DNA of 20,195 nucleotides, from the IMG/VR virus record IMGVR_UViG_3300035670_008229, positions 1 to 20,195 of that record. The stretch is one strand, 5' to 3'. The notes under the pieces were generated by a model that worked only from the letters and a program-made list of their open reading frames with translations, did not search any database and was not told where the DNA came from. Source of the stretch: a virus. This document shows, piece by piece, positions 2,282-19,696 of this stretch (its first letter is position 1; the number at the start of each line of letters is the position of its first letter). The position numbers and the translations under genes are program-made.

Positions 2282-2313
2282 AACGCCGCCCTGATTGATT
2301 TCGGAGCGGCGTT
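2282..2313. terminator. bidirectional inverted-repeat terminator between convergent genes
   Basis: AACGCCGC (2282-2289) pairs with GCGGCGTT (2306-2313), and a CC/GG pairing inside extends the stem across a bulged A. On the plus strand it is followed by TTTAAACTT. On the minus strand the stem runs into a TTCTTCTTTC stretch. It lies between the HD gene (+) and the tagged minus-strand gene ending at 2340, so it can serve both. It belongs to a family of at least four such hairpins in this window. Confidence 0.8.
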
Positions 2314-2339
2314 TAAACTTATATATCAACTAAAGTTAA

Positions 2340-2627
2340 TCAACCTCGAACCCGCCGATTAAAACCTCTATATAGACGTTTTTGCCATTCTTCATTTTCT
2401 TCACGGTCACGACGATATCGTTCCGCTGCATCTGGGTTGGCTGCTCGGTATTCGGGACTGTCACGTTCAAGAGCTCTACGATCCCTCTCGTTCGCCGCTG
2501 CGATGAGCTCCTCGCTCGGCTCCTCGCCCTGGATGGCGGCTTCGAGATCTTCTTCTGAATATTCCCTTGTTATTTCTTCAACTTGTTCACGAATAAGTTG
2601 CTTAAGTTGTTTTAATGAAATTCTCAT
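2340..2627 (-). CDS. tagged small charged protein of unknown function
   Basis: This 95-residue product starts with MRISLKQLKQLIREQVEE, an amphipathic helix almost identical to the starts of two other minus-strand genes nearby (at 5478 and 5945). The rest is extremely charged (Glu, Arg, Asp, Ala) and probably helical, with no catalytic motif. The helix contains I-R-E, matching the (L/I)-x-E rule of T4-type prohead proteases. I infer that the tag targets the protein to the phage head, with the remainder as cargo. The cargo portion (about 2435-2556) is visibly GC-richer than the tag and the neighbours, which hints at a separate origin. AAGGA seven bases before the ATG is a good ribosome binding site. 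A frame on the opposite strand (2437-2649) is rejected as its shadow. Confidence 0.75.
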   Translation of the reverse strand: MRISLKQLKQLIREQVEEITREYSEEDLEAAIQGEEPSEELIAAANERDRRALERDSPEYRAANPDAAERYRRDREENEEWQKRLYRGFNRRVRG

Positions 2628-3744: not shown

Positions 3745-3778
3745 AAACGCCGCCCCAGAAAAATCTGGGGCGGCGTTT
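3745..3778 (+). terminator. intrinsic terminator after the SSB gene
   Basis: This is a perfect 15-bp stem (3745-3759 with 3764-3778) with an AAAA loop, followed by AACTTTTTAAA. It has the same ACGCCGCC/GGCGGCGT core as the hairpins at 2282, 5003 and 9222, and is the strongest member of that family. Confidence 0.9.
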
Positions 3779-3810: not shown

Positions 3811-4977
3811 ATGTCAACCGCAAACTTAAAAATATTATTAGAATATTTGTTTGAAAAAACAAACACTAATGTATTTGGTAATTCATTTAACGATCCAGAT
3901 AAAAAGCGTCCAATAAGTGATCCTCCAGAGAAGAACACGCCAGAGGAACAAAAGTTTGTTGATAAGCTTGACAAATGGTTTAATAGCCACTTGGTTGCCA
4001 GTAGTTTAAATAACTTTGCCGATGAAATAGCACGGCTAATGCCGCTTGTTAGGTCTGGCAAATATCCAGAGTTAACACCGCCTTCTGGTAATGTTTATAG
4101 AGGTATGACGTTGACACTAGAACAGCTTAAGAATTTCTTAGGTTTAGAAGAATTTACTATCAAAGCTGGCGAGTATAAGGTTATCAAAAAGGGTGGTGTT
4201 TTAACGCCTCAAAAAATAAAGTATTATAAAGCAGGCAAACCTATAAGTTCTTGGTCTACTGATGCTCGTGAGGCCGCACACTTCGCACTTAGTGATGGCA
4301 AGAAGCTCAATGGAATTGAGTTAAATGTTGTATTTATTGCAAATACAAATGATTCGGCAAATAATTTTATTCTCAATCCAGATAAACTTTTAAAATCTTA
4401 TGTTCATCCTATAACAAAATATGTGAATGAAAAAGAAGTTTTAGGTATTGGACCGGTTAATTTTAATAGTGTTATTGTTTTTAGTAAAGTTGATGTAGTG
4501 CCCGAAGAATCTCCTGCTGCCGAAACAAAAAAGCTTTTGGATGCTGCATTTAATGACATCGTTAATGAAATTAATGCCAGTATTCAAGATACGAAATCGG
4601 AAATTTCTAAAGCTGCACAGAAACTCAGTTTACGATCACCATCAAATATGCGTAAAGTCCCATTGGTTCCGAATTCAGATCCATCTCATTCAATATTGGC
4701 AAATGGAATATATGAAATCATAAAAAGAAATGCAGAACAATATAATCTAAAAACAAAAAAACCTATAGATGCTCTAAAGCAATTGAAAAATAGAATAATT
4801 AGTATGCATACCGACAGAGCTTATGAAGGTATCAGTAGTTTAAGTAGCGTTGGTAACATTGCAGCTCGAGAAGCCCTTGGTTCAAGTATTAGATATGCAT
4901 TAGGCGATAAAGCTAAAAAATACCTACATTTAAATCCGGACACGTTAGCTAAGAAGGCTTCCCGAAAAAGAGCTTAA
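3811..4977 (+). CDS. tagged ADP-ribosyltransferase (R-S-E class)
   Basis: This 388-residue protein has the three signatures of arginine-type mono-ADP-ribosyltransferases in order: Arg97 in NVYRGMT, the Ser-x-Ser strand at 147-149 in ISSWSTD, and the E-x-E pair Glu207/Glu209 in VNEKEVLG. Such enzymes move ADP-ribose from NAD+ to target proteins. In T4, Alt is packaged in the head and injected to modify host RNA polymerase, while ModA and ModB are made after infection. The N-terminus, NLKILLEYLFEK, is an amphipathic helix ending in L-F-E, which fits a prohead-protease site and favours the Alt model. Residues 240-388 are a helical, basic region of unknown role. TATTTAAA lies at 3799-3806, only four bases before the ATG, and no Shine-Dalgarno is visible. 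It sits between two terminators as its own unit. Confidence 0.82.
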   Translation: MSTANLKILLEYLFEKTNTNVFGNSFNDPDKKRPISDPPEKNTPEEQKFVDKLDKWFNSHLVASSLNNFADEIARLMPLVRSGKYPELTPPSGNVYRGMTLTLEQLKNFLGLEEFTIKAGEYKVIKKGGVLTPQKIKYYKAGKPISSWSTDAREAAHFALSDGKKLNGIELNVVFIANTNDSANNFILNPDKLLKSYVHPITKYVNEKEVLGIGPVNFNSVIVFSKVDVVPEESPAAETKKLLDAAFNDIVNEINASIQDTKSEISKAAQKLSLRSPSNMRKVPLVPNSDPSHSILANGIYEIIKRNAEQYNLKTKKPIDALKQLKNRIISMHTDRAYEGISSLSSVGNIAAREALGSSIRYALGDKAKKYLHLNPDTLAKKASRKRA

Positions 4978-4998: not shown

Positions 4999-5032
4999 AA
5001 GAACGCCGCCCTGATTGATTTCGGAGCGGCGT
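4999..5032 (+). repeat. 34-bp exact direct repeat (second copy at 2279-2312)
   Basis: The same 34 bases occur at 2279-2312 and here, each between convergent genes and each next to a gene carrying the MKIS-type tag. The unit contains a full terminator hairpin. Repeats of this length can act as recombination points that let cassettes be exchanged. Confidence 0.85.
5003..5032. terminator. terminator between convergent genes, identical to the 2282 copy
   Basis: ACGCCGC (5003-5009) pairs with GCGGCGT (5026-5032). The 34 bases at 4999-5032 are identical to 2279-2312, including the loop. The hairpin lies between the ADP-ribosyltransferase gene (+) and a minus-strand gene ending at 5065. Exact identity of the unpaired loop points to recent duplication or gene conversion rather than selection on the stem alone. 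Confidence 0.8.
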
Positions 5033-5064: not shown

Positions 5065-5424
5065 TCAACGTTTGCTACGTTTGCCCTGAGCGGCCCGAGC
5101 AAGTCCACCGGCCATTTCTCGTGCTTCTCCTTCTGGGTAATTTGTAAGTGAAAGACCATACATATCTTTTGGTTCACTTTCCGCTGGTTCAAAACCAAGA
5201 AGATCCCTAAAAACTGCGTCTGCATGACCCGTTGTATAGTATTCGCCGTTCATCGCTGCGATTTCCATGCTCTTTTCAAGCTCGTCGTCTAACACACCAG
5301 GGTTTTCTTTTACAAAAAGATCATATGCTTTGCCATAAGCATCTTTCAAATCTTTTTTACGATCTCTTATCATATTAGAGTCATCTTTAGGTTTACGTGC
5401 CTCTGGCATACTAGAGTGAGCCAT
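5065..5424 (-). CDS. small unknown protein, tag lost to an upstream stop codon
   Basis: The 119-residue frame begins at the Met that would be the last tag residue (EEMAHSS) of a longer protein. Upstream in the same frame, from the ATG at 5476-5478, the codons read M-K-I-S-A-K-stop-L-K-Q-L-I-R-E-Q-V-E-E. The original start was therefore almost certainly at 5478, and a TAA at 5458-5460 now separates tag from cargo. The cargo is hydrophilic and mixed helical (RDRKKDLKDAYGKAYDLF, DDELEKSMEIAAMNGEYY) with a Lys/Arg-rich end, and matches no family I know. It lies 41 bases downstream of the gene at 5520-5945 in a minus-strand operon. Whether it is still translated depends on restart at 5424, which has only a poor ribosome binding site. 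Confidence 0.6.
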   Translation of the reverse strand: MAHSSMPEARKPKDDSNMIRDRKKDLKDAYGKAYDLFVKENPGVLDDELEKSMEIAAMNGEYYTTGHADAVFRDLLGFEPAESEPKDMYGLSLTNYPEGEAREMAGGLARAAQGKRSKR

Positions 5425-5478
5425 TTCTTCTACTTGCTCACGGATAAGTTGTTTGAGTTATTTCGCTGAAATCTTCAT
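5425..5478 (-). pseudogene. tag sequence broken by an in-frame TAA
   Basis: On the minus strand the 18 codons from 5478 encode the same tag as the genes at 2627 and 5945, except that codon 7, CAA (Gln) in both of those, is TAA here (5458-5460). The 27 bases CTTATCCGTGAG...GAAATG are identical to the corresponding part of the 5945 gene. One C-to-T change explains the stop. AAGAAGAGA upstream of the ATG still resembles a ribosome binding site. A sequencing error or a polymorphism cannot be excluded. Confidence 0.75.
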
Positions 5479-6082: not shown

Positions 6083-6829
6083 ATGGCAAAACCAACAAAA
6101 AAATCAGGAGATACAGTAGCAACAGTTCAAGATACAGTAATAGACGATTTCTCGTCGGATCTTATCAAAGCAATCAATAAAGAACACAATGATAAGATCG
6201 CTTTCAATCTTGGTGTAGATGATGCACCAACATATGTTCATCGCTGGATTTCTACCGGTTCCCGACAACTTGATTATATCATAGCTAATCGTAGAGGTGG
6301 CGGAATGCCAGAAGGACGTATTGTAGAAATACAAGGTCCACCAGGCATAGGTAAATCAACTCTAATGGCTCAAATCGCTCGTTCAACTCAAAGAATGGGC
6401 GGCATTGCTGTTTATATAGATACAGAAAATGCAACCAATCCAGATACACTTTCAAATATGGGAGTTGATGTAGCAAGACGTTTCGTATTCGTTCAATCTC
6501 CTTGCACAGAAGAAATTCTTTCTGTTATAGAAAGCACAATTCTTAAAGCTCGCACAATGACAAAAGATGTTCCAGTAACCGTTATCTGGGATTCAGTTTC
6601 TCAATCTTCTCCAAAAGCTGAATTAGAGGGCGATTATGATCAAAATACCATTGGTCTACAGGCTCGTGTTCTTTCTAAAGGTATGAGAAAAATCGCTAAC
6701 GTTATTGGTGGTCAAAAGGTTCTTTTAGTTCTTGTATCACAACAACGTCAAAAAATTGGTGTAATGTTTGGTGATTCTTGCGTGAGTCCCGATACAATCA
6801 TTAAGATACGTCGTAAAATCGTAGGATGA
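6083..6829 (+). CDS. RecA/UvsX recombinase N-terminal part fused to intein N-fragment
   Basis: Residues 1-232 are the N-terminal part of a RecA-family recombinase. The Walker A loop is GPPGIGKS (85-92), with the catalytic Glu115 in YIDTENA and Walker B in VTVIWD (to Asp170). PKAELEGDYD and QQRQKIGVMFGDS match the region of bacterial RecA leading into loop L2. The protein stops being RecA at residue 233: CVSPDTIIKIRRKIVG followed by TGA is a 16-residue intein N-fragment, starting with the splice-site Cys and the typical block A pattern. The rest of RecA is encoded from 8001. The mature protein would drive strand exchange and recombination-dependent replication. AAGGAAA six bases upstream gives a good start. 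The stop overlaps the start of the HNH gene. Confidence 0.88.
   Translation: MAKPTKKSGDTVATVQDTVIDDFSSDLIKAINKEHNDKIAFNLGVDDAPTYVHRWISTGSRQLDYIIANRRGGGMPEGRIVEIQGPPGIGKSTLMAQIARSTQRMGGIAVYIDTENATNPDTLSNMGVDVARRFVFVQSPCTEEILSVIESTILKARTMTKDVPVTVIWDSVSQSSPKAELEGDYDQNTIGLQARVLSKGMRKIANVIGGQKVLLVLVSQQRQKIGVMFGDSCVSPDTIIKIRRKIVG
6779..6826 (+). other. intein N-fragment (16 residues)
   Basis: The fragment starts with Cys1 directly after extein Gly-Asp-Ser and contains only block A (CVSPDTIIKI) plus a basic tail (RRKIVG) before the stop. Block B, normally on the N-fragment, lies on the other half instead. This matches the atypically split intein class with very short N-fragments known from phage genes in metagenomes. 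The fragment is basic; the partner's N-terminus is strongly acidic. Confidence 0.85.
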
Positions 6830-7647
6830 TGACAACAGAGAGTAAAAATCGGTATAGGAAAGACAAGTTGCCAATCTTTAGCTACTCGGAAGAGAGACGA
6901 AGAAATATTGGCAAAGCACGACTCAAACAACTTGATGCTGAAACTTTGAAACAGCTTCAAGAATATTGGGAAAAGCGATATGTTCCTGAAAAATGGATTT
7001 TAACCACTCTCAACCTGTCAAAGAGGGTCTATTCTCGTTATCTTACGGAACATTGTAAACATGAACAGATAAAGTTTTTGCCACAAAACTTGTCGCCGGA
7101 TGTTTATCAGATGATTATCTCTCGAAGCAAAGAACAAGTCCCATATAAAACAATCGCAGAGGATTTGGACTTGGAATGTCGTCAAGTAAGAAAGATCATC
7201 TGTAAGCTTGCTCCATATTATGATATTGTGCCGGTATCCAAGCCAAGATATGTTCCAGATAAATATCATCGGGTAAAGCTCGCAAATCTTTTAAGCGACT
7301 ATAATCATGCAAATCCAAAAAAGAGAGAACAAAATCCGAATTGGAAAGGCGGCAAAACAAAACTCGTAGAATCAATAAGAAAGCATGATAAATACAAAGC
7401 TTGGCGACTTGATATATTTGAACGTGACAAATTTACATGTATCCTCTGTCAAAATACGAAAGATATTCAGGCAGATCATATAAAGCCATTCTCAGTCATT
7501 CTTTTAGAAAACGGTATATGTTCATTAGAAAACGCTATAGAATGTAAAGAACTATGGAATAGAGATAATGGTAGAACATTATGTAAAACATGTCACCATA
7601 AACAACCAACACATGGAACAGGAGCCCTAAAATGGAAGAATATATAG
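6826..7647 (+). CDS. HNH homing endonuclease between the split intein halves
   Basis: The 273-residue product ends in an HNH nuclease domain: Cys205/Cys208 (CILC), Asp217-His218 (ADHIKP), the asparagine-containing NRDNGRTLC stretch, and Cys253/Cys256-His257 (CKTCHH), giving two zinc-type Cys pairs around the metal site. Before it is NPNWKGG (170-176), a motif common in phage HNH homing enzymes. The N-terminal 130 residues hold two helix-turn-helix-like segments (WILTTLNLSKRVYSRYL, YKTIAEDLDLECRQVRKII) probably used for target recognition. The start ATG overlaps the stop of the recA N-half (ATGA), and its last 16 bases overlap the next gene, so all three are translationally linked. It probably cuts intein-free recA alleles and spreads the element. 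A second ATG at 6829 could be the true start. Confidence 0.85.
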   Translation: MMTTESKNRYRKDKLPIFSYSEERRRNIGKARLKQLDAETLKQLQEYWEKRYVPEKWILTTLNLSKRVYSRYLTEHCKHEQIKFLPQNLSPDVYQMIISRSKEQVPYKTIAEDLDLECRQVRKIICKLAPYYDIVPVSKPRYVPDKYHRVKLANLLSDYNHANPKKREQNPNWKGGKTKLVESIRKHDKYKAWRLDIFERDKFTCILCQNTKDIQADHIKPFSVILLENGICSLENAIECKELWNRDNGRTLCKTCHHKQPTHGTGALKWKNI

Positions 7648-8000
7648 AAGAAGAAATAACATTTAGAGAGTTGGCAAAACGATTAGGAATAGAAGATTTG
7701 GATACTCCAGAAGAGTATGATATCAAAGAAGAAGGATATCAAATCTTATCATATGATGAAGCAACTGGAAAAGAAGTTTGGCAAGCTTTAGAAGCATATG
7801 TAGTTAAAAAGAATGCTGCCGAACATTATCAGCTTAGTACATTACATGGAACCGCCGATCATAAAGTCCTTCTTGGAAAAGAATATGTAAGGCTCGCAGA
7901 TCATCCGGGCGCAGAGTTGGTTAAACAGCCAATCCAAGTTGTTGATTGCCAGGTTGCAAATACACATTGCTACCTTGCTGAAGGTCAAGTAAATCATAAT
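7632..8000 (+). other. intein C-fragment (123 residues) with blocks B, F and G
   Basis: The splice junction is His-Asn | Thr at 7998-8003. Block B (GTADHKVL) lies on this half, showing that the split point falls between blocks A and B. The acidic leader (residues 1-36) could pair with the basic tail of the N-fragment. Confidence 0.85.
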
Positions 8001-8528
8001 ACTACTACATCTGGTGGTATGGCAATTCCTTATTCATCATCTGTTCGTATACGTCTTGATGGTGGTTCAGCTATCAAAGACAAAGAAGATAATGTTATAG
8101 GAATTAATGTTACTGCAAAGACGATTAAAAACAAAGTTGCTAAACCATTTCGTAAGGTTGGATTCCAGATAATGTTTGGTAAGGGTATATTTGAGAATGA
8201 TGAGATATTTGATTTATTGAGAGAATATTGTAAGAGTAGCAAGAGTGGAGTAGTTGTTAATAATAAATCGGTATTAGTAGCTGGAGATGCAGCTTGGAAG
8301 ACGTTTACGATAACGGATTTAAAGACTGGTGAGGTAGAATCTGAAGTTAAATTTTATAAAAATGAATTTTCTCAGAAAGTTTTGAACAAAGCTGAATACT
8401 TAGAGTATGTTAATGCGCTGATGGATGCTGCACTTATCATAAGCGGTAATGAAAATACTGAGGAACATATTACATTTGAAGGTATGACTGAAGGTGATGT
8501 AAGAACTGCTGATGAGTTAAGCGCCTGA
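7632..8528 (+). CDS. intein C-fragment fused to RecA/UvsX C-terminal part
   Basis: Residues 1-123 are the intein C-fragment and residues 124-298 are the C-terminal 175 residues of RecA, starting TTTSGGMAIPYSSSV. That lines up with TTTGGNALKFYASV of bacterial RecA directly after loop L2. The intein part carries block B (T74-A-D-H77), block F around Asp105 (QVVDCQVANTHCYLAEG) and the C-terminal His122-Asn123 before Thr+1. Joining 232 and 175 residues gives a 407-residue recombinase in which MFGDS meets TTTSGG. AGGAG at 7620-7624, inside the HNH gene and seven bases before this ATG, allows independent initiation. The first 36 residues are very acidic. Neither half would be an active recombinase before splicing, because the join lies in the DNA-binding loop. 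Confidence 0.88.
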   Translation: MEEYIEEEITFRELAKRLGIEDLDTPEEYDIKEEGYQILSYDEATGKEVWQALEAYVVKKNAAEHYQLSTLHGTADHKVLLGKEYVRLADHPGAELVKQPIQVVDCQVANTHCYLAEGQVNHNTTTSGGMAIPYSSSVRIRLDGGSAIKDKEDNVIGINVTAKTIKNKVAKPFRKVGFQIMFGKGIFENDEIFDLLREYCKSSKSGVVVNNKSVLVAGDAAWKTFTITDLKTGEVESEVKFYKNEFSQKVLNKAEYLEYVNALMDAALIISGNENTEEHITFEGMTEGDVRTADELSA

Positions 8529-14546: not shown

Positions 14547-15200
14547 ATGTCAGATATTATATTTGAAGTTAGACGTTTTCAAAAATTAGCTGGAATACGT
14601 GAAGCTTTTGAAGAGCGTCCATTACAAATATATTTTGATATGGATGGTGTTCTTGCGGATTTTGAAGGTGGATTTTCAAATAAATCAATTGATATTGCCC
14701 GACGTGATTTAATTGAACTTCAAAATAAAATTCCTGAATTCAAAGGTAAAAGTTTTGATGAATTAAAAGCAATGTTAGCTGGGATTCAAAAAAAGCCTTC
14801 ACATAAAGCTTTGAAAAATGCTTTATATGATATGAATAAAGAGATATATGCAATATCTGGACAAGAGGGATTTTTCTTGAATTTACCAGAAATGCCGGGT
14901 GCCAGAACAATGTTAGAAGTTGCAATACAATTATCTGGTAGATTGCCACATATCTTGACTGCACCAGTAAAATCTGAATTTTGTCAACCAGAAAAAGAAC
15001 AATGGATGATTGATCATTTTGATGGACTTTATGATCAATTCTATTGTCAATCTAATAAAGAAGAATTTGCTAATCCAGATGCTTTATTAATTGACGACAG
15101 AATGAAAAATATCAATATATTCCGAGAAGCTGGTGGACAAGTTATTTATCACACCGATCCAGAAATAACAATTAAAAGACTTAGAGAAATATTTGCTTAA
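14547..15200 (+). CDS. tagged HAD-family 5'-nucleotidase-like protein
   Basis: The 217-residue product has the HAD phosphatase motifs: YFDMDGVLADF with Asp31 (nucleophile) and Asp33, ILTAP (136-140) as motif II, and LLIDDRMKNI with Asp183/Asp184 as motif IV. It resembles the 5'(3')-deoxyribonucleotidase-like proteins common in phages, which dephosphorylate (deoxy)nucleotides. The first 23 residues precede the fold and form an amphipathic helix (FEVRRFQKLAGIREAFEE) with I-R-E, so it may carry a variant of the head-targeting tag. AGGAA six bases before the ATG is a good start signal. Its stop codon overlaps the stop codon of the convergent exonuclease gene by three bases, with no terminator between them. 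Confidence 0.85.
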   Translation: MSDIIFEVRRFQKLAGIREAFEERPLQIYFDMDGVLADFEGGFSNKSIDIARRDLIELQNKIPEFKGKSFDELKAMLAGIQKKPSHKALKNALYDMNKEIYAISGQEGFFLNLPEMPGARTMLEVAIQLSGRLPHILTAPVKSEFCQPEKEQWMIDHFDGLYDQFYCQSNKEEFANPDALLIDDRMKNINIFREAGGQVIYHTDPEITIKRLREIFA

Positions 15201-16024
15201 GGAATATTATAAGTTCCTTTTCTTTCTTCAAAGAATTCTACTAATTTAGATAATATTCCAGCAAGTTGTTCTACGTCTGCTAAGGCATCATGCCAATGTT
15301 CTGTTGATATTTGAAAAGCGGTTCCAAGATTACCAAGACGATTTAAGAATTTCTTTTCTGGTCTTAGAATACGAATCAGAGGTTCAGCAACTGGATCACC
15401 TTGTTTTTCCATTATTTTCAAAAGTGGAAAGAAATAATTTTTATTAAGAGTTAATGTGTCAACAACTGGTAATCTTGGTAATTTAGGGAGATTATTACGT
15501 TCCAATGCTTTACCAATTTGATACATATCAAATCTTGCATTATGTGCAACTAACAAAGGATTTAGACTTTCAAGATTTCTTATAAAGTTCAAAAACTGTT
15601 CCATCATTTCTTTTTCTTCAAGACGAGGAGCAGTTTCTGAATGATAAGCGGTCATTTTCAAGATTTGATCAATTGTTAAACGATCTTTATATTTTGCTGC
15701 CCATGCTCCAGAAGCAACTCTTTCAGCTTCATTTTCCATTCTCTTTTTTACCGCATCAGATAAATTTGCTTTATAATTGATTTGATCAATTTTTTTACCA
15801 CTTCTTGTATCATAAGCTACAGCGGCAATTTGTGTGATCATTACATAATCATTTCGTGGTCCTAAACCGGTAGTTTCGGTATCCAAAAATATTAAAGTTT
15901 TATCCTTGAGTTTATCAACCAATTGTTCTAAATTCAGAAGAGATCTTTCAATTTGACCTTCATCTAAGGATTCATGAACGATTTGTTTGACCTGTAATTT
16001 TATATATTCCTTTAATAAATTCAT
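15197..16024 (-). CDS. tagged DEDDh 3'-5' exonuclease
   Basis: The 275-residue product has the three exonuclease motifs of the DEDDh (DnaQ-like) superfamily: ExoI FLDTETTGL with Asp48 and Glu50, ExoII VAHNARFDM with Asp166, and ExoIII WHDALADVEQL with His245 and Asp250. It would degrade DNA or RNA from the 3' end. The first 24 residues (NLLKEYIKLQVKQIVHESLDE) are an amphipathic helix ending in L-D-E, with the catalytic fold starting near residue 43, so a cleavable targeting tag is plausible. It is the only minus-strand gene between 6 kb and the end of the window. Upstream on the minus strand lie TATTATAC and TATTTAAG (plus 16042-16049), which could form its promoter. No polymerase lies beside it, so a proofreading role is unlikely; degrading host nucleic acid after injection is an inference. 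Confidence 0.88.
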   Translation of the reverse strand: MNLLKEYIKLQVKQIVHESLDEGQIERSLLNLEQLVDKLKDKTLIFLDTETTGLGPRNDYVMITQIAAVAYDTRSGKKIDQINYKANLSDAVKKRMENEAERVASGAWAAKYKDRLTIDQILKMTAYHSETAPRLEEKEMMEQFLNFIRNLESLNPLLVAHNARFDMYQIGKALERNNLPKLPRLPVVDTLTLNKNYFFPLLKIMEKQGDPVAEPLIRILRPEKKFLNRLGNLGTAFQISTEHWHDALADVEQLAGILSKLVEFFEERKGTYNIP

Positions 16025-16096
16025 ATTGGTTTATCTTTTTTCTTAAATATGGTATAATAGATGTTAGGAATATAATCTTTTGAAGAAAAGGTGTCT

Positions 16097-17311
16097 ATGG
16101 GTGGATTAGGTGGACATATGGCGCATCCATATGAAAATATGGATCTTACTTTTGGACAACTCAAGGCTATTTTTCATCAAGCCAGCAAAGGTAAATTGCA
16201 ACAAGTTTCGGAAAAGCTTGATGGACAAAATGTATTTTTCACATATCGCCAAGACGGTTTGAGATTTGCCAGAAATATCACCGATATAAGAAATGGCGGC
16301 ATGAATTATGATGATATCATAACTCGGTGGCGAGATCGGATTCCAAGCATCGCTTCGGCATTTGGCGAGGCTTATAAGGCTTTGTCCATAGCCATAGGGT
16401 CATTGTCATCACGAGAACGTTCCAAGGCTTTTGGAGGCAAAAGAATCATTTGGTATTCAGCAGAAATATTGTTTGCTGTTAGCCGAAACGTTTATAACTA
16501 TGATGGTGATTCTATCGTTATTCATAAAAGTGGAACAATATATGATAATGGCAAACCTCTAAAAATTGATACTACCAGAAATTACAATAATCTAATATCA
16601 TATATTCCAAAAATGGAACGTGCTATTGGAAATACAAATATTCGTATTATGGGTCCAGTATTAGTTTACCTAAATAAACTATCTAATAATGAACCATTGG
16701 AAACTGCTATTGCAGATCTAAATTCTATTATGGTTAAGCACAATCTAAGCAATCAGGACACATTGTCAGATTTCTTCATTGATCATTTGGTAGAAAATCA
16801 ACTTAAAGATTTAAATACTGATTATGACACAAAGCGTTATATTGCTGAATTGATATCTGACATTGATGAACTTATTAATCCTCGTAAGGTTTATTTGAAG
16901 ACTTTGGAACAAGCTGGATTGATTACGAGAGAGGAGAACAAGAATATTTCTGTTTTATTTTCTCAAGCTCCGAAGCTTTATATGGATTTGATTGAACCGA
17001 TTAGAACGATTATGAGGGAATTTTCGGTTGAGTTATTTAATTCGGTTCAAAGTAATTTGATTTTGGATTCGGATATAGAAATTTCACGATTGCGTTTAGA
17101 AGTTCAAAGCGTTAAGCAACGAATTAATGTAAACGGTTCAGATCATCAAAGGGAATTGTTTAATAAAGAATTTGGGCGTTTAAAAAATATTGATAGCATT
17201 ACCAGTTCTATGGAAGGTATTGCATTTAATTTTGATGATCGGGTTTATAAATTTACTGGAGCATTTGGTCCAATGAATGCAATTCTTGGCATTTTCAAAT
17301 ATGACCGATAA
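16097..17311 (+). CDS. DNA/RNA ligase superfamily nucleotidyltransferase-like protein
   Basis: The 404-residue product shows covalent nucleotidyltransferase motifs: motif I SEKLDGQN with Lys40 (K-x-D-G), an Arg in FARN (about 59) as the usual follow-on, motif III YSAEILF with Glu123, motif IV MEGIAFNF with Glu373, and motif V DRVYKFTG with Lys385. The family joins nucleic-acid ends or transfers AMP/GMP through a lysine-nucleotide intermediate. The opening GGLGGHMAHPYEN resembles a group of phage proteins of unknown function that I recall as DUF6267; that name is from memory. About 250 residues separate motifs III and IV, far more than in small RNA ligases, and look mostly helical. The ATG at 16097 has AAAAGG five bases upstream; a GTG at 16091 is the alternative. 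The substrate is unknown. Confidence 0.7.
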   Translation: MGGLGGHMAHPYENMDLTFGQLKAIFHQASKGKLQQVSEKLDGQNVFFTYRQDGLRFARNITDIRNGGMNYDDIITRWRDRIPSIASAFGEAYKALSIAIGSLSSRERSKAFGGKRIIWYSAEILFAVSRNVYNYDGDSIVIHKSGTIYDNGKPLKIDTTRNYNNLISYIPKMERAIGNTNIRIMGPVLVYLNKLSNNEPLETAIADLNSIMVKHNLSNQDTLSDFFIDHLVENQLKDLNTDYDTKRYIAELISDIDELINPRKVYLKTLEQAGLITREENKNISVLFSQAPKLYMDLIEPIRTIMREFSVELFNSVQSNLILDSDIEISRLRLEVQSVKQRINVNGSDHQRELFNKEFGRLKNIDSITSSMEGIAFNFDDRVYKFTGAFGPMNAILGIFKYDR

Positions 17312-17319
17312 TTAACGTT

Positions 17320-18240
17320 ATGTCGGAAAATCTTAGAAAATTATTGGAATATCTTGTTCAAGAAGAGTTAGATGAACAAAATGCTTTAGCTGCTGGTGGT
17401 GTAGCTGCTACATCAACTGGTTTAGCTTTAAATGTAAGAAAATTTCGTCCAGCAGGTAAAAAAAGAAAAAGAAGATTAACGGAAATTAATACTGTATATG
17501 GGACAAATAGCCCCCAAAGTTTTGCAGATATAGAATCCGAGGACATGGATGCGGCAAGAGAAGATGCAGATTTATCTCAAAATGATGATACAAAGAGTCC
17601 GAGAAAAGATTCTGGTCGTGATAGAAAAGACAATAGAAGAAAAAAGAAATTTAAATTTCGTAAAAGCGAGCAAGGTTATAATCCAGTAGCAGATACAATG
17701 TGGAATTATGGTGATAAACCAACAGGAGATACACCGGCTACACGTGTAAAATATATTGCCTTAGAAGAAAGTGTAAATTTAAGAAAAAAACAAACGGTTA
17801 AGGTTATTGTAGATAAACAATTACAACAAAAATCATTTGAAACTATTATTGATTTTATTAAATTCACTAACAGTATATTAAAACTTAATAATCTTCCAGC
17901 AATATATCTTCATACGATAAAGAAACCAGAAATGACGACTGGTATGTTTAATCGTCAAACAAACACATTACATGTTTTAGTTGGTAAACGTCTTATTGTA
18001 GATGTATTAAGAACCATTGCTCATGAGTTGACACATGCCAAACAACATGAAGCGGGTTTATTGGATATTCATTTAGCTAATATTGATTTTAATAATGAGA
18101 TGGCAGATATAGATACGCCTTATGAAAATGAGGCGTATACTCTTGCTGGAAACATTGTAAAAATATTTTGTCGCAAATATCCCAAGATTACCAAGGACGA
18201 ACTATATCAATTAAATGAAGTTGTAAAGAAATTACGATAA
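17320..18240 (+). CDS. tagged zinc metalloprotease (HExxH)
   Basis: The 306-residue product carries His235-Glu236-x-x-His239 in TIAHELTHAKQHE, followed about 30 residues on by YENEAYTLA, whose Glu269 or Glu271 can be the third zinc ligand, as in gluzincin-type peptidases. Residues 1-20 (NLRKLLEYLVQEELDEQ) form an amphipathic helix ending L-D-E, close in sequence to the start of the ADP-ribosyltransferase (NLKILLEYLFE). A long charged, probably disordered linker follows, with basic blocks KKRKRR and RKDNRRKKKFKFRK and an acidic block between. The basic blocks could bind packaged DNA. The protease domain occupies roughly 155-306. The gene starts eight bases after the ligase-like gene and lacks an obvious Shine-Dalgarno. 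Confidence 0.8.
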   Translation: MSENLRKLLEYLVQEELDEQNALAAGGVAATSTGLALNVRKFRPAGKKRKRRLTEINTVYGTNSPQSFADIESEDMDAAREDADLSQNDDTKSPRKDSGRDRKDNRRKKKFKFRKSEQGYNPVADTMWNYGDKPTGDTPATRVKYIALEESVNLRKKQTVKVIVDKQLQQKSFETIIDFIKFTNSILKLNNLPAIYLHTIKKPEMTTGMFNRQTNTLHVLVGKRLIVDVLRTIAHELTHAKQHEAGLLDIHLANIDFNNEMADIDTPYENEAYTLAGNIVKIFCRKYPKITKDELYQLNEVVKKLR

Positions 18241-18253
18241 AATCATATAGCTT

Positions 18254-18290
18254 CCCTCTATTTATATTAGTGTGTTATTGTTGTGGAGGG
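18254..18290 (+). promoter_or_regulatory. possible hairpin masking the ribosome binding site
   Basis: CCCTCTAT (18254-18261) can pair, with two G-T wobbles, to GTGGAGGG (18283-18290), which contains the Shine-Dalgarno of the lipoprotein protease gene. The 21-base loop is AT-rich. Such pairing could hold back translation, but the stem is short. Confidence 0.3.
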
Positions 18291-18294
18291 TGTT

Positions 18295-19041
18295 ATGAAA
18301 TTGTTGGGCGTATTTTTATCATTTTTAATGTTATTTGGTTGTTCGGGTAGCAACGTTAATATTCAAAGATCTGATATGGATCAAGATATATTACGTAATG
18401 CATTACAATCTACAGTTATTATTGTTGAAAACAGAAATGAATCCAATGAAGAAAGCATTGCGGCTGTAGAATGTAGTGGATTTTTCGTTGCTCCAAGAGT
18501 ATTAGTAAGTGCTTTACATTGTTTCCAACGTATCATTAGAATTCAATTAAGAGATGGAGTATTGCAACTTCCTACTCGTCCAGATCCAACTGGCGATGTT
18601 ATTCAATTTGTAAGATATGATGAAATTGATCATATGAGCAGACGATATCTTGTAGATGTAATCAATGAAGCAACTGTTGTCAGAATAGATGCCGATAGAG
18701 ACATTGCAATATTAAATTTAAATCCTGGAACTCAAGATTCTGTTCGGTTTTTGACATTAAGCAATCGTATTCCAGATGTTACTGAGAGAGTTTATTTAAT
18801 TGGTCATCCATTGGAGATGGTTTGGACGGTTGGAGATGGAATTGTTTCTCGTAACGTTATTATTGGGGAACAATTATCTTATATTCAAACAAATATTGGA
18901 TTAGTTGGTGGTTATTCTGGTGGTCCGATGTTAGATATTAATGGTAATGTTTTAGGTATGGCAAATTATTTTGTTGGTCAAATGCATCATTTATCGTTAT
19001 TTGTTTCGGCACAAAGGATATCTAATCTTATAATTAACTGA
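18295..19041 (+). CDS. lipoprotein trypsin-like serine protease
   Basis: The 248-residue product begins with a lipoprotein signal peptide: Lys2, a hydrophobic core and the lipobox LFGC with the lipidated Cys16. The mature part has the catalytic triad of trypsin-like proteases in order: His75 (VLVSALHCF), Asp136 (DADRDIAIL) and Ser208 (GGYSGGP). Cys60 and Cys76 flank the histidine as in the Cys42-Cys58 disulfide of chymotrypsin. It is therefore probably exported and anchored in the cell envelope during infection. Targets could be envelope proteins, with a role in lysis, superinfection exclusion or defence, none of which is shown. GGAGG five bases before the ATG at 18295 is the best ribosome binding site of this region; a GTG at 18283 would lie over the Shine-Dalgarno and is rejected. 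Confidence 0.88.
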   Translation: MKLLGVFLSFLMLFGCSGSNVNIQRSDMDQDILRNALQSTVIIVENRNESNEESIAAVECSGFFVAPRVLVSALHCFQRIIRIQLRDGVLQLPTRPDPTGDVIQFVRYDEIDHMSRRYLVDVINEATVVRIDADRDIAILNLNPGTQDSVRFLTLSNRIPDVTERVYLIGHPLEMVWTVGDGIVSRNVIIGEQLSYIQTNIGLVGGYSGGPMLDINGNVLGMANYFVGQMHHLSLFVSAQRISNLIIN

Positions 19042-19045
19042 TAAG

Positions 19046-19696
19046 ATGCAGACAATTGATATAATCAGATACGGCAATCCAACTAAGTATCAACAAAAAC
19101 GGATAGAAGAAGAAGACGAGTTAACTGCTCGTCTTTTTCGTGCTGGATTATATAAAGAAATTTTAAATCAACCGCCGCCACTTAATTCTTCCATTCAAAC
19201 ACAACAAGAATTAAATGATATCGTATTAAAAGTTAATTCTTTAACAGATAAACAAAAAAAGTTTTGTAAACGAGCTGAACACGATATGTATGGTTTATAT
19301 GTTTCTTTATTAAGAAAACATGGAATAAACAAATATACTCGCATAGATTTTGAAAATTTTTTTGATAAAACCGATCCATTTCTTTTTAGAATCAAATATT
19401 TCTATAATCGTCCAAGACCATATCAACTTGCTGTATATTTGCAACCAGATTTATATTTGCCGATAAAAACATATACAACAATTACACCGGCATATCCAAG
19501 TGGTCATGCATTTGAAGCAACGTTATTGTCTTTGTTATTGAGTAGACATTATCCAAAATTAAGAAAAGAATTAATGAAATTAGCCAAAAATATTTCTGCA
19601 TCAAGAATGTATATTGGTGTTCATTATAAATCTGATTGTATATTTGGAATTAAACTTGCAAGACTAGTTGTTGATTATGTGGATGATTTAAAATGA
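19046..19696 (+). CDS. PAP2-superfamily phosphatase
   Basis: The 216-residue product contains the three-part PAP2/haloperoxidase signature exactly spaced: K-x6-RP (Lys117 to Arg124-Pro125), PSGH (151-154) and SR-x5-H-x3-D (Ser186-Arg187, His193, Asp197). The histidines act as nucleophile and acid/base in phosphate ester hydrolysis. Most bacterial members that act on lipid phosphates have five or six membrane helices. Here no strong hydrophobic segment is visible, so this appears to be a soluble form like the class A acid phosphatases, but without a signal peptide. The substrate is unknown. The gene starts four bases after the protease gene and overlaps the next by four bases (ATGA), so the three are probably co-translated. 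Confidence 0.85.
   Translation: MQTIDIIRYGNPTKYQQKRIEEEDELTARLFRAGLYKEILNQPPPLNSSIQTQQELNDIVLKVNSLTDKQKKFCKRAEHDMYGLYVSLLRKHGINKYTRIDFENFFDKTDPFLFRIKYFYNRPRPYQLAVYLQPDLYLPIKTYTTITPAYPSGHAFEATLLSLLLSRHYPKLRKELMKLAKNISASRMYIGVHYKSDCIFGIKLARLVVDYVDDLK

What the first reader, a model, noticed from the sequence alone, without database searches (positions are those of the whole stretch)
3811..4977. ADP-ribosyltransferase with a putative packaging tag: a functional analogue of T4 Alt
The R-S-E active site is complete (Arg97, Ser147/Ser149, Glu207/Glu209), and the protein starts with a short helix ending L-F-E. T4 Alt is packaged and acts at once after injection on host RNA polymerase. This protein is about half the length of Alt and has a 150-residue basic C-terminal region with no recognised domain. 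It is flanked by terminators on both sides, as an exchangeable cassette would be.
Basis: partly seen in the sequence, partly recalled or inferred. Interest (0 to 1): 0.6.

Follow-up and report, generated by a model that had tools for sequence, protein, structure and literature searches.

The report
Tagged ADP-ribosyltransferase, probable phage-head cargo

Summary
ORF 3811-4977 (388 aa) has a complete R-S-ExE ADP-ribosyltransferase (ART) site (R97, S147/S149, E207/E209). The site is invariant in seven aligned ART sequences, two of them near-identical, that resemble it otherwise by as little as 28-31%. The modelled domain matches Vis toxin (Z 7.0), cholera A, pertussis S1, C3 and KptA. No Pfam, PHROG or named-phage relative was found.

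The packaging tag is the stronger half. The N-terminal helix ending L-F-E matches the T4 prohead-protease rule (L/I-x-E). A homologue on a 147-kb phage contig keeps the body (54%) but carries that phage's own, different tag. Non-homologous proteins of this clade share N-terminal tags far beyond chance (113 pairs against 0). Related tags occur on proteins beside the prohead protease, scaffold and major capsid protein. One tag type is conserved as peptide (dN/dS-like 0.09).

The ART is a cassette: it sits in another slot in relatives, with the identical 28-base hairpin after it.

Best reading: virion-packaged, injected mono-ART, working like T4 Alt, but a separate family without detectable Alt homology outside the Arg strand. 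Virion presence, activity, target (RNA polymerase included) and host are untested. The wider tag-plus-payload cassette set may matter more than this one enzyme.

The parts
3811..4977 (+). ADP-ribosyltransferase ORF, 388 aa
3811..3855 (+). N-terminal tag MSTANLKILLEYLFE with predicted prohead-protease site after E15 (L-F-E)
   Evidence: E15 invariant and preceded two residues earlier by L in the long homologues; tag replaced in L028; similar tags on non-homologous proteins
3940..4506 (+). ART domain, aa 44-232
   Evidence: AlphaFold model pLDDT 75.5, pTM 0.75; Vis 4xzj Z 7.0, rmsd 3.6, 140 aligned
4099..4101 (+). R97, NAD-binding arginine of the YRG strand
4249..4257 (+). S147-W-S149, second conserved ART motif
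4420..4437 (+). Y204-x-x-E207-x-E209, aromatic-xxExE turn and catalytic glutamate
4516..4974 (+). basic helical C-terminal region, aa 236-388; poorly conserved, absent from the 239-aa homologue
3745..3778 (+). strong intrinsic terminator between ssb and the ART
5002..5032 (.). hairpin after the ART; its 28-base core is identical to the hairpin after the ART in L017 and L029, and to window 2284-2311
2282..2314 (.). second copy of the same hairpin, in the slot where relatives carry the ART
2340..2627 (-). small protein with tag MRISLKQLKQLIREQVEE
5065..5424 (-). small protein whose upstream, in-frame tag (5425-5478) is interrupted by a TAA
5520..5945 (-). small protein with tag MKISVRQLKQLIREQVEE
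17320..18240 (+). putative metallopeptidase with ART-like tag MSENLRKLLEYLVQEELDEQ
15197..16024 (-). RNase_T-type exonuclease with tag MNLLKEYIKLQVKQIVHESLDE
14547..15200 (+). 5'-nucleotidase with an N-terminal extension shared with an unrelated protein

Best explanation
It is a mono-ADP-ribosyltransferase made as a precursor with a short N-terminal prohead-targeting tag. During head assembly the tag would bring it into the prohead core, and the clade's gp21-like prohead protease would cut after L-F-E15 to release the basic mature enzyme. The enzyme would stay with the packaged DNA and enter the host with it, to modify one or more host proteins (probably on arginine, because the site is ExE) before phage genes are expressed. 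The basic helical C-terminal region probably holds DNA in the head or selects the target. The gene is one of several exchangeable tag-plus-payload cassettes, ended by a recurring hairpin, that occupy variable slots among the replication genes. Shown by computation: the ART fold and intact site, the tag as a module separable from the body, tag sharing with head-cluster proteins, the presence of a gp21-like protease, and cassette mobility. Inferred: packaging, cleavage, injection, catalysis, arginine specificity and host target.
For: ART: catalytic residues are invariant across divergent homologues; the model matches ARTs with Vis-NAD first (Z 7.0), then KptA, cholera A, pertussis S1, Arr, C3, DarT and PARPs; Foldseek's top three PDB hits are Vis, probability 0.63-0.90. 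Tag as module: L028 keeps the body but carries MRITEGQLRTIIRQ..., the tag type of other genes of its own contig, and still has LFE at the junction; the 239-aa homologue starts MSIKKLIFE|DA. Tag sharing: among 180 proteins with non-homologous bodies, 113 N-terminal pairs score 40 or more against 0 internal pairs. The L017 ART tag scores 45 against the tag of the SprT-like protein, reached by 0 of 1010 internal windows, and 34 against MKLKLKHLLTELFEQ of a head-cluster gene. MKIT-type tag DNA has a dN/dS-like ratio of 0.09. [LI]xE occurs in 83% of 60 LKxLL-type tags against 49% after shuffling, 0 of 1000 shuffles as high. Head assembly: the clade has portal, gp21-like protease, scaffold and MCP, with LFE-tagged genes a few kb downstream of MCP; the MCPs keep L/I-x-E at the position of T4's LTE cut; 14 of 15 protease-bearing loci have a tag-like protein one or two genes after the protease (profile scan). 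T4 rules: CTS and L/I-x-E (PMC9026906); Alt cut at ITE-6 and LTE-619 (PMC5694885). Cassette.
Against: No virion, proteome or expression data. The single ART tag of the window is only moderately significant by itself: its best match, 36, is reached by 2 of 1010 internal windows. A second L-L-E lies at residues 9-11, so the exact cut site is uncertain. P1' is K in the window, not A as at several T4 sites. The gene lies among replication genes, not late genes, and no shared late-promoter motif was established. The model of the tag itself is low confidence. ART domain Z is 7.0, under the usual safe limit of 8, although the match list is almost wholly ARTs.
Confidence: 0.64

Rival explanations
1. 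An ART made inside the infected cell and not packaged, like T4 ModA/ModB. The N-terminal helix only binds a partner or localises the enzyme.
For: The gene sits among replication genes; T4 itself has two non-packaged ARTs (PMC9503650); no late promoter was identified.
Against: Related N-terminal modules are found on proteins next to the prohead protease, scaffold and MCP and on many unrelated bodies; L028 replaced the tag and kept L-F-E.
Confidence: 0.2
2. A packaged ART whose job is counter-defence or killing of competitors (for example inactivating a host immune protein) rather than Alt-like reprogramming of transcription.
For: Rare and mobile: ART in 1 of 12 ssb-recA slots, other slots empty or with different tagged genes. 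T4 internal protein IPI is such an anti-restriction cargo (PMC3012670).
Against: No target information either way; this differs from the best explanation only in target.
Confidence: 0.35
3. The conserved N-terminal stretch is a DNA-level element (recombination or expression signal) that happens to be translated, and the ART is ordinary cytoplasmic cargo of a mobile cassette.
For: Tagged genes often end in the same hairpin (19 of 33 against 35 of 827 others), which suggests cassette recombination.
Against: Tag DNA varies mainly at synonymous sites (1012 against 390 differences, dN/dS-like 0.09), and the ART's own tag differs in DNA from the MKIT type.
Confidence: 0.05

Closest known systems
T4 Alt (packaged RNA polymerase ADP-ribosyltransferase)
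   Same: R-S-ExE ART; short N-terminal propeptide ending in L/I-x-E (ITE-6 in Alt); T4-like phage with gp21-type protease; predicted injection with DNA.
   Different: 388 against 682 aa; no Alt N-terminal region; profile comparison finds only the Arg strand; different gene neighbourhood; basic helical C-terminus; mobile cassette. Target unknown.
T4 internal proteins IPI/IPII/IPIII and their capsid targeting sequence (CTS)
   Same: Short N-terminal peptide shared by otherwise unrelated basic cargo proteins, ending at L/I-x-E; variable payloads (PMC9026906, PMC3012670).
   Different: Tag sequences differ from T4's; several tag types coexist; payloads include predicted enzymes (ART, exonuclease, nucleotidase, metallopeptidase).
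Vis toxin of Vibrio splendidus and the C3/cholera-type R-S-E ARTs
   Same: Closest solved folds (Vis-NAD Z 7.0 over 140 residues; Vis also solved with agmatine); same R-S-ExE layout.
   Different: About 17% identity; no secretion signal; fused to a phage-type tag and a basic helical tail.
Mobile regulatory cassettes (stem-loops) of T4-type phages (Arbiol et al. 2010; only the reference was seen)
   Same: Hairpins bounding exchangeable genes in variable slots of a T4-like genome.
   Different: Here the hairpin is terminator-like and follows tagged genes; the paper itself was not held, so the comparison rests on memory.

Membership tests
ART superfamily, R-S-E clade | Arg strand, S-x-S/T type motif and ExE glutamate conserved | tested here: met
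   Invariant in seven aligned sequences; 0 of 200,000 shuffles
ART superfamily, R-S-E clade | ART fold | tested here: met
   Domain model pTM 0.75; nearly all 50 listed matches are ARTs, best Z 7.0
ART superfamily, R-S-E clade | NAD-dependent ADP-ribosyl transfer | not testable with these tools
   Needs biochemistry
T4 Alt family | Detectable sequence/profile homology to Alt proteins | tested here: not met
   hhalign of A5 against seven Alts: probability 1.6%, 22 columns around the Arg only; ART part alone, probability 4.5%, 24 columns
T4 Alt family | About 680-aa architecture with Alt N-terminal region | tested here: not met
   388 aa; the Alt alignment shows a conserved N-terminal half with no counterpart here
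T4 Alt family | Present in virion and acts on host RNA polymerase | not testable with these tools
   No virion or biochemical data
T4-type capsid targeting sequence | Short N-terminal peptide shared by proteins with unrelated bodies | tested here: met
   tag replacement in L028
T4-type capsid targeting sequence | L/I-x-E site at the end of the peptide | tested here: met
   LFE-15 in the window, LLE-14, LFE-34 and IFE-9 in homologues; enrichment in LKxLL-type tags
T4-type capsid targeting sequence | A gp21-type prohead protease and L/I-x-E maturation in the same phages | tested here: met
   Protease in clade contig G017 and L/I-x-E at the MCP cut position; the window's own contig is a fragment without head genes
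T4-type capsid targeting sequence | Actual cleavage and packaging | not testable with these tools
   Needs virion mass spectrometry

The most novel reading that the evidence does not exclude
These large freshwater and marine T4-like phages run a general head-cargo system: interchangeable cassettes of conserved targeting tag, arbitrary payload and terminator hairpin. Several tag types are also used on prohead core proteins, and dozens of different enzymes and small proteins, including this new ART family, are packaged and injected.
Probability: 0.5. Interest if true: 0.78.

Novelty: new variant of a known kind. Interest (0 to 1): 0.6.

Why it matters
If right, a short N-terminal peptide marks which unknown phage proteins are injected into the host. 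That turns many orphan genes of abundant uncultured T4-like phages into a testable list of early host-takeover and counter-defence proteins. The ART itself would be a packaged ADP-ribosyltransferase family unrelated by sequence to Alt. Packaged phage ARTs are an accepted idea (PMC9503650), so the enzyme alone is not a surprise.

Tried and rejected
Relatives of the ART by single sequence in viral contigs and named phages: none. Short ART and second ART against named phages: none. Further viral scan with the ART domain alignment: only already known members. PDB by sequence: only chance allophycocyanin hits. First full-length model: too weak for its ART part, where Vis was the only ART listed. 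Pfam PF03420 search for the protease: the control also failed to ring, so it was uninformative; replaced by comparison with T4 and Mel-JY01 proteins. The MKIT tag as a 20-aa tblastn query against named phages: no match, but short queries are insensitive. Late-promoter motif: ATATTTAA-like sequence near the starts of the ART and some tagged genes but not near MCP; not pursued. No Alt structure appeared in the fold lists; this is not evidence against kinship. Host assignment: one homologue lies in a contig binned to a Rickettsiaceae MAG (L031), but the contig is phage DNA and the bin is not trusted. Papers linking CTS with metagenomic phages: none found.

Full report
Setting. The window is a whole IMG/VR viral contig of 20,195 bases. 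It holds T4-like replication genes (gp32-like ssb, UvsX/RecA-like with an HNH insertion, gp41-like helicase, RNase H, dut, nrdA/B). It has no match among named phages by megablast, but many close relatives in IMG/VR.

Observation. ORF 3811-4977 and the stated residues are real: R97, S147/S149 and E207/E209, with an aromatic residue at 204 completing a YxxExE turn. No profile library or PDB sequence recognises the protein. Homologues were found in relatives L017/L029 (one lineage), in L031 (a contig binned to a Rickettsiaceae MAG), on a 147-kb phage contig (L028/G013), and as a 239-aa form in L148-L150. G013 carries a second, diverged ART right after the first. Across these the ART site is invariant while most other positions vary.

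Fold. A model of the whole protein was weak in the ART part (pLDDT 62.5). A domain model (aa 44-232, seven sequences) reached pLDDT 75.5 and pTM 0.75. Among PDB chains it aligns best to Vis toxin with NAD (Z 7.0, rmsd 3.6, 140 residues), then KptA, cholera A, pertussis S1, Arr, C3, DarT and PARPs. Foldseek alone ranks Vis first at probability 0.63-0.90; among viral models it lists mostly uncharacterised proteins and one annotated T4-type RNA polymerase ART at low confidence. I take the ART fold as established for practical purposes; activity is not shown. ExE rather than QxE, and Vis being solved with agmatine, point to arginine as acceptor; this is inference from family knowledge.

Tag. The N-terminus MSTANLKILLEYLFE|KTN ends in L-F-E. 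T4's prohead protease cuts after L/I-x-E (PMC9026906), and Alt itself is cut at ITE-6 and LTE-619 (PMC5694885). Five lines support a targeting tag. First, swap: L028 has a body 54% identical overall but starts MRITEGQLRTIIRQVLFRLTE..., the tag of other genes on its contig, and still has HLFE at the junction. Second, sharing: among 180 proteins of the clade with non-homologous bodies, 113 N-terminal pairs score 40 or more, against none for internal segments. The ART tag matches the tag of the SprT-like protein and of a head-cluster gene. Third, selection on peptide: 23 MKIT-type tags have a dN/dS-like ratio of 0.09. Fourth, cleavage motif: [LI]xE is in 83% of 60 LKxLL-type tags against 49% in shuffles. 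Fifth, head genes: contig G017, whose tail-tube gene is nearly identical to that of relative G005, has portal, gp21-like protease, scaffold and MCP, and a few kb after MCP three genes starting SLKWLFEQ, SLKWLFEQ and LKHLLTELFEQ. The His and Ser surroundings of gp21 are conserved and MCP keeps L/I-x-E at the T4 cut position. In 14 of 15 loci with the protease, one or two genes downstream lies a protein with an MKxT-type N-terminus. A profile of the MKIT tag scores 12 or more in 3.4% of 2028 N-termini against 0.06% of internal windows.

Cassette. In 12 loci covering the ssb-recA interval, five are nearly empty, six hold only tagged small genes, and only the window holds the ART. In L017/L029/L031 the ART sits in the HD-ssb interval instead. 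The 28-base hairpin after the ART is identical in the window and L017/L029, and occurs again at window 2284-2311 in the other slot. MKIT-tagged genes are followed by such a hairpin in 19 of 33 cases against 35 of 827 other genes. Movement by recombination at hairpins is plausible; it is inference.

Relation to Alt. Seven Alt proteins were aligned. Profile comparison finds only the Arg strand, at probability 1.6-4.5%, and the architecture and neighbourhood differ. So this works like Alt, if packaged, but is not shown to be an Alt. Packaged phage ARTs have been proposed broadly (44% of phage ARTs in packaging contexts, PMC9503650).

Conclusion. ART fold and intact site: about 0.95. N-terminal peptide a prohead-targeting tag: about 0.75. 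Packaged, injected ART acting on host proteins early: 0.64. RNA polymerase as target: untested. The rival that differs only in target (counter-defence) overlaps with the best explanation, so the confidences are not exclusive. The novelty lies in the tag-and-payload cassette system and in an ART family without Alt homology, a new variant of a known kind.

Noticed in passing
window 5425-5478 (minus strand): The tag in front of the 5065-5424 gene reads MKISAK, then TAA, then LKQLIREQVEEM: a stop inside an otherwise conserved tag; the ORF can restart at the Met after it.
   Followed up: partly
window 2284, 3748, 5004, 9224: Four hairpins with CGCCGC stems (none expected by chance); those at 2284 and 5004 are identical over 28 bases.
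   Followed up: yes
L028 1915-3063: A second, diverged ART directly after the first, with a long N-terminal part that weakly matches a transglutaminase core.
   Followed up: partly
window 6083-8528: RecA/UvsX-like gene interrupted by an HNH-containing insertion (probably an intein) that several relatives lack.
   Followed up: no
L006 12465-15275 and L018 8500-11283: nrdA match split after residue 263 by about 1 kb of extra DNA at the same point in both (intron or intein).
   Followed up: no
window 14547-18240: Predicted 5'-nucleotidase, RNase_T-type exonuclease and SprT-like metallopeptidase each carry a tag-like N-terminus, so enzymes other than the ART may be head cargo.
   Followed up: partly
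G017 38158-39903 (in L228): A 581-aa ORF that looks like a GroEL-type chaperonin in the clade's head-gene contig.
   Followed up: no
window 19046-19696: Protein with an RPRP...YPSGHA pattern like PAP2-type phosphatases, next to a trypsin-like lipoprotein (18283-19041).
   Followed up: no
L031: A 5.6-kb contig of this phage clade is binned in a Rickettsiaceae genome assembly, probably by misbinning.
   Followed up: no
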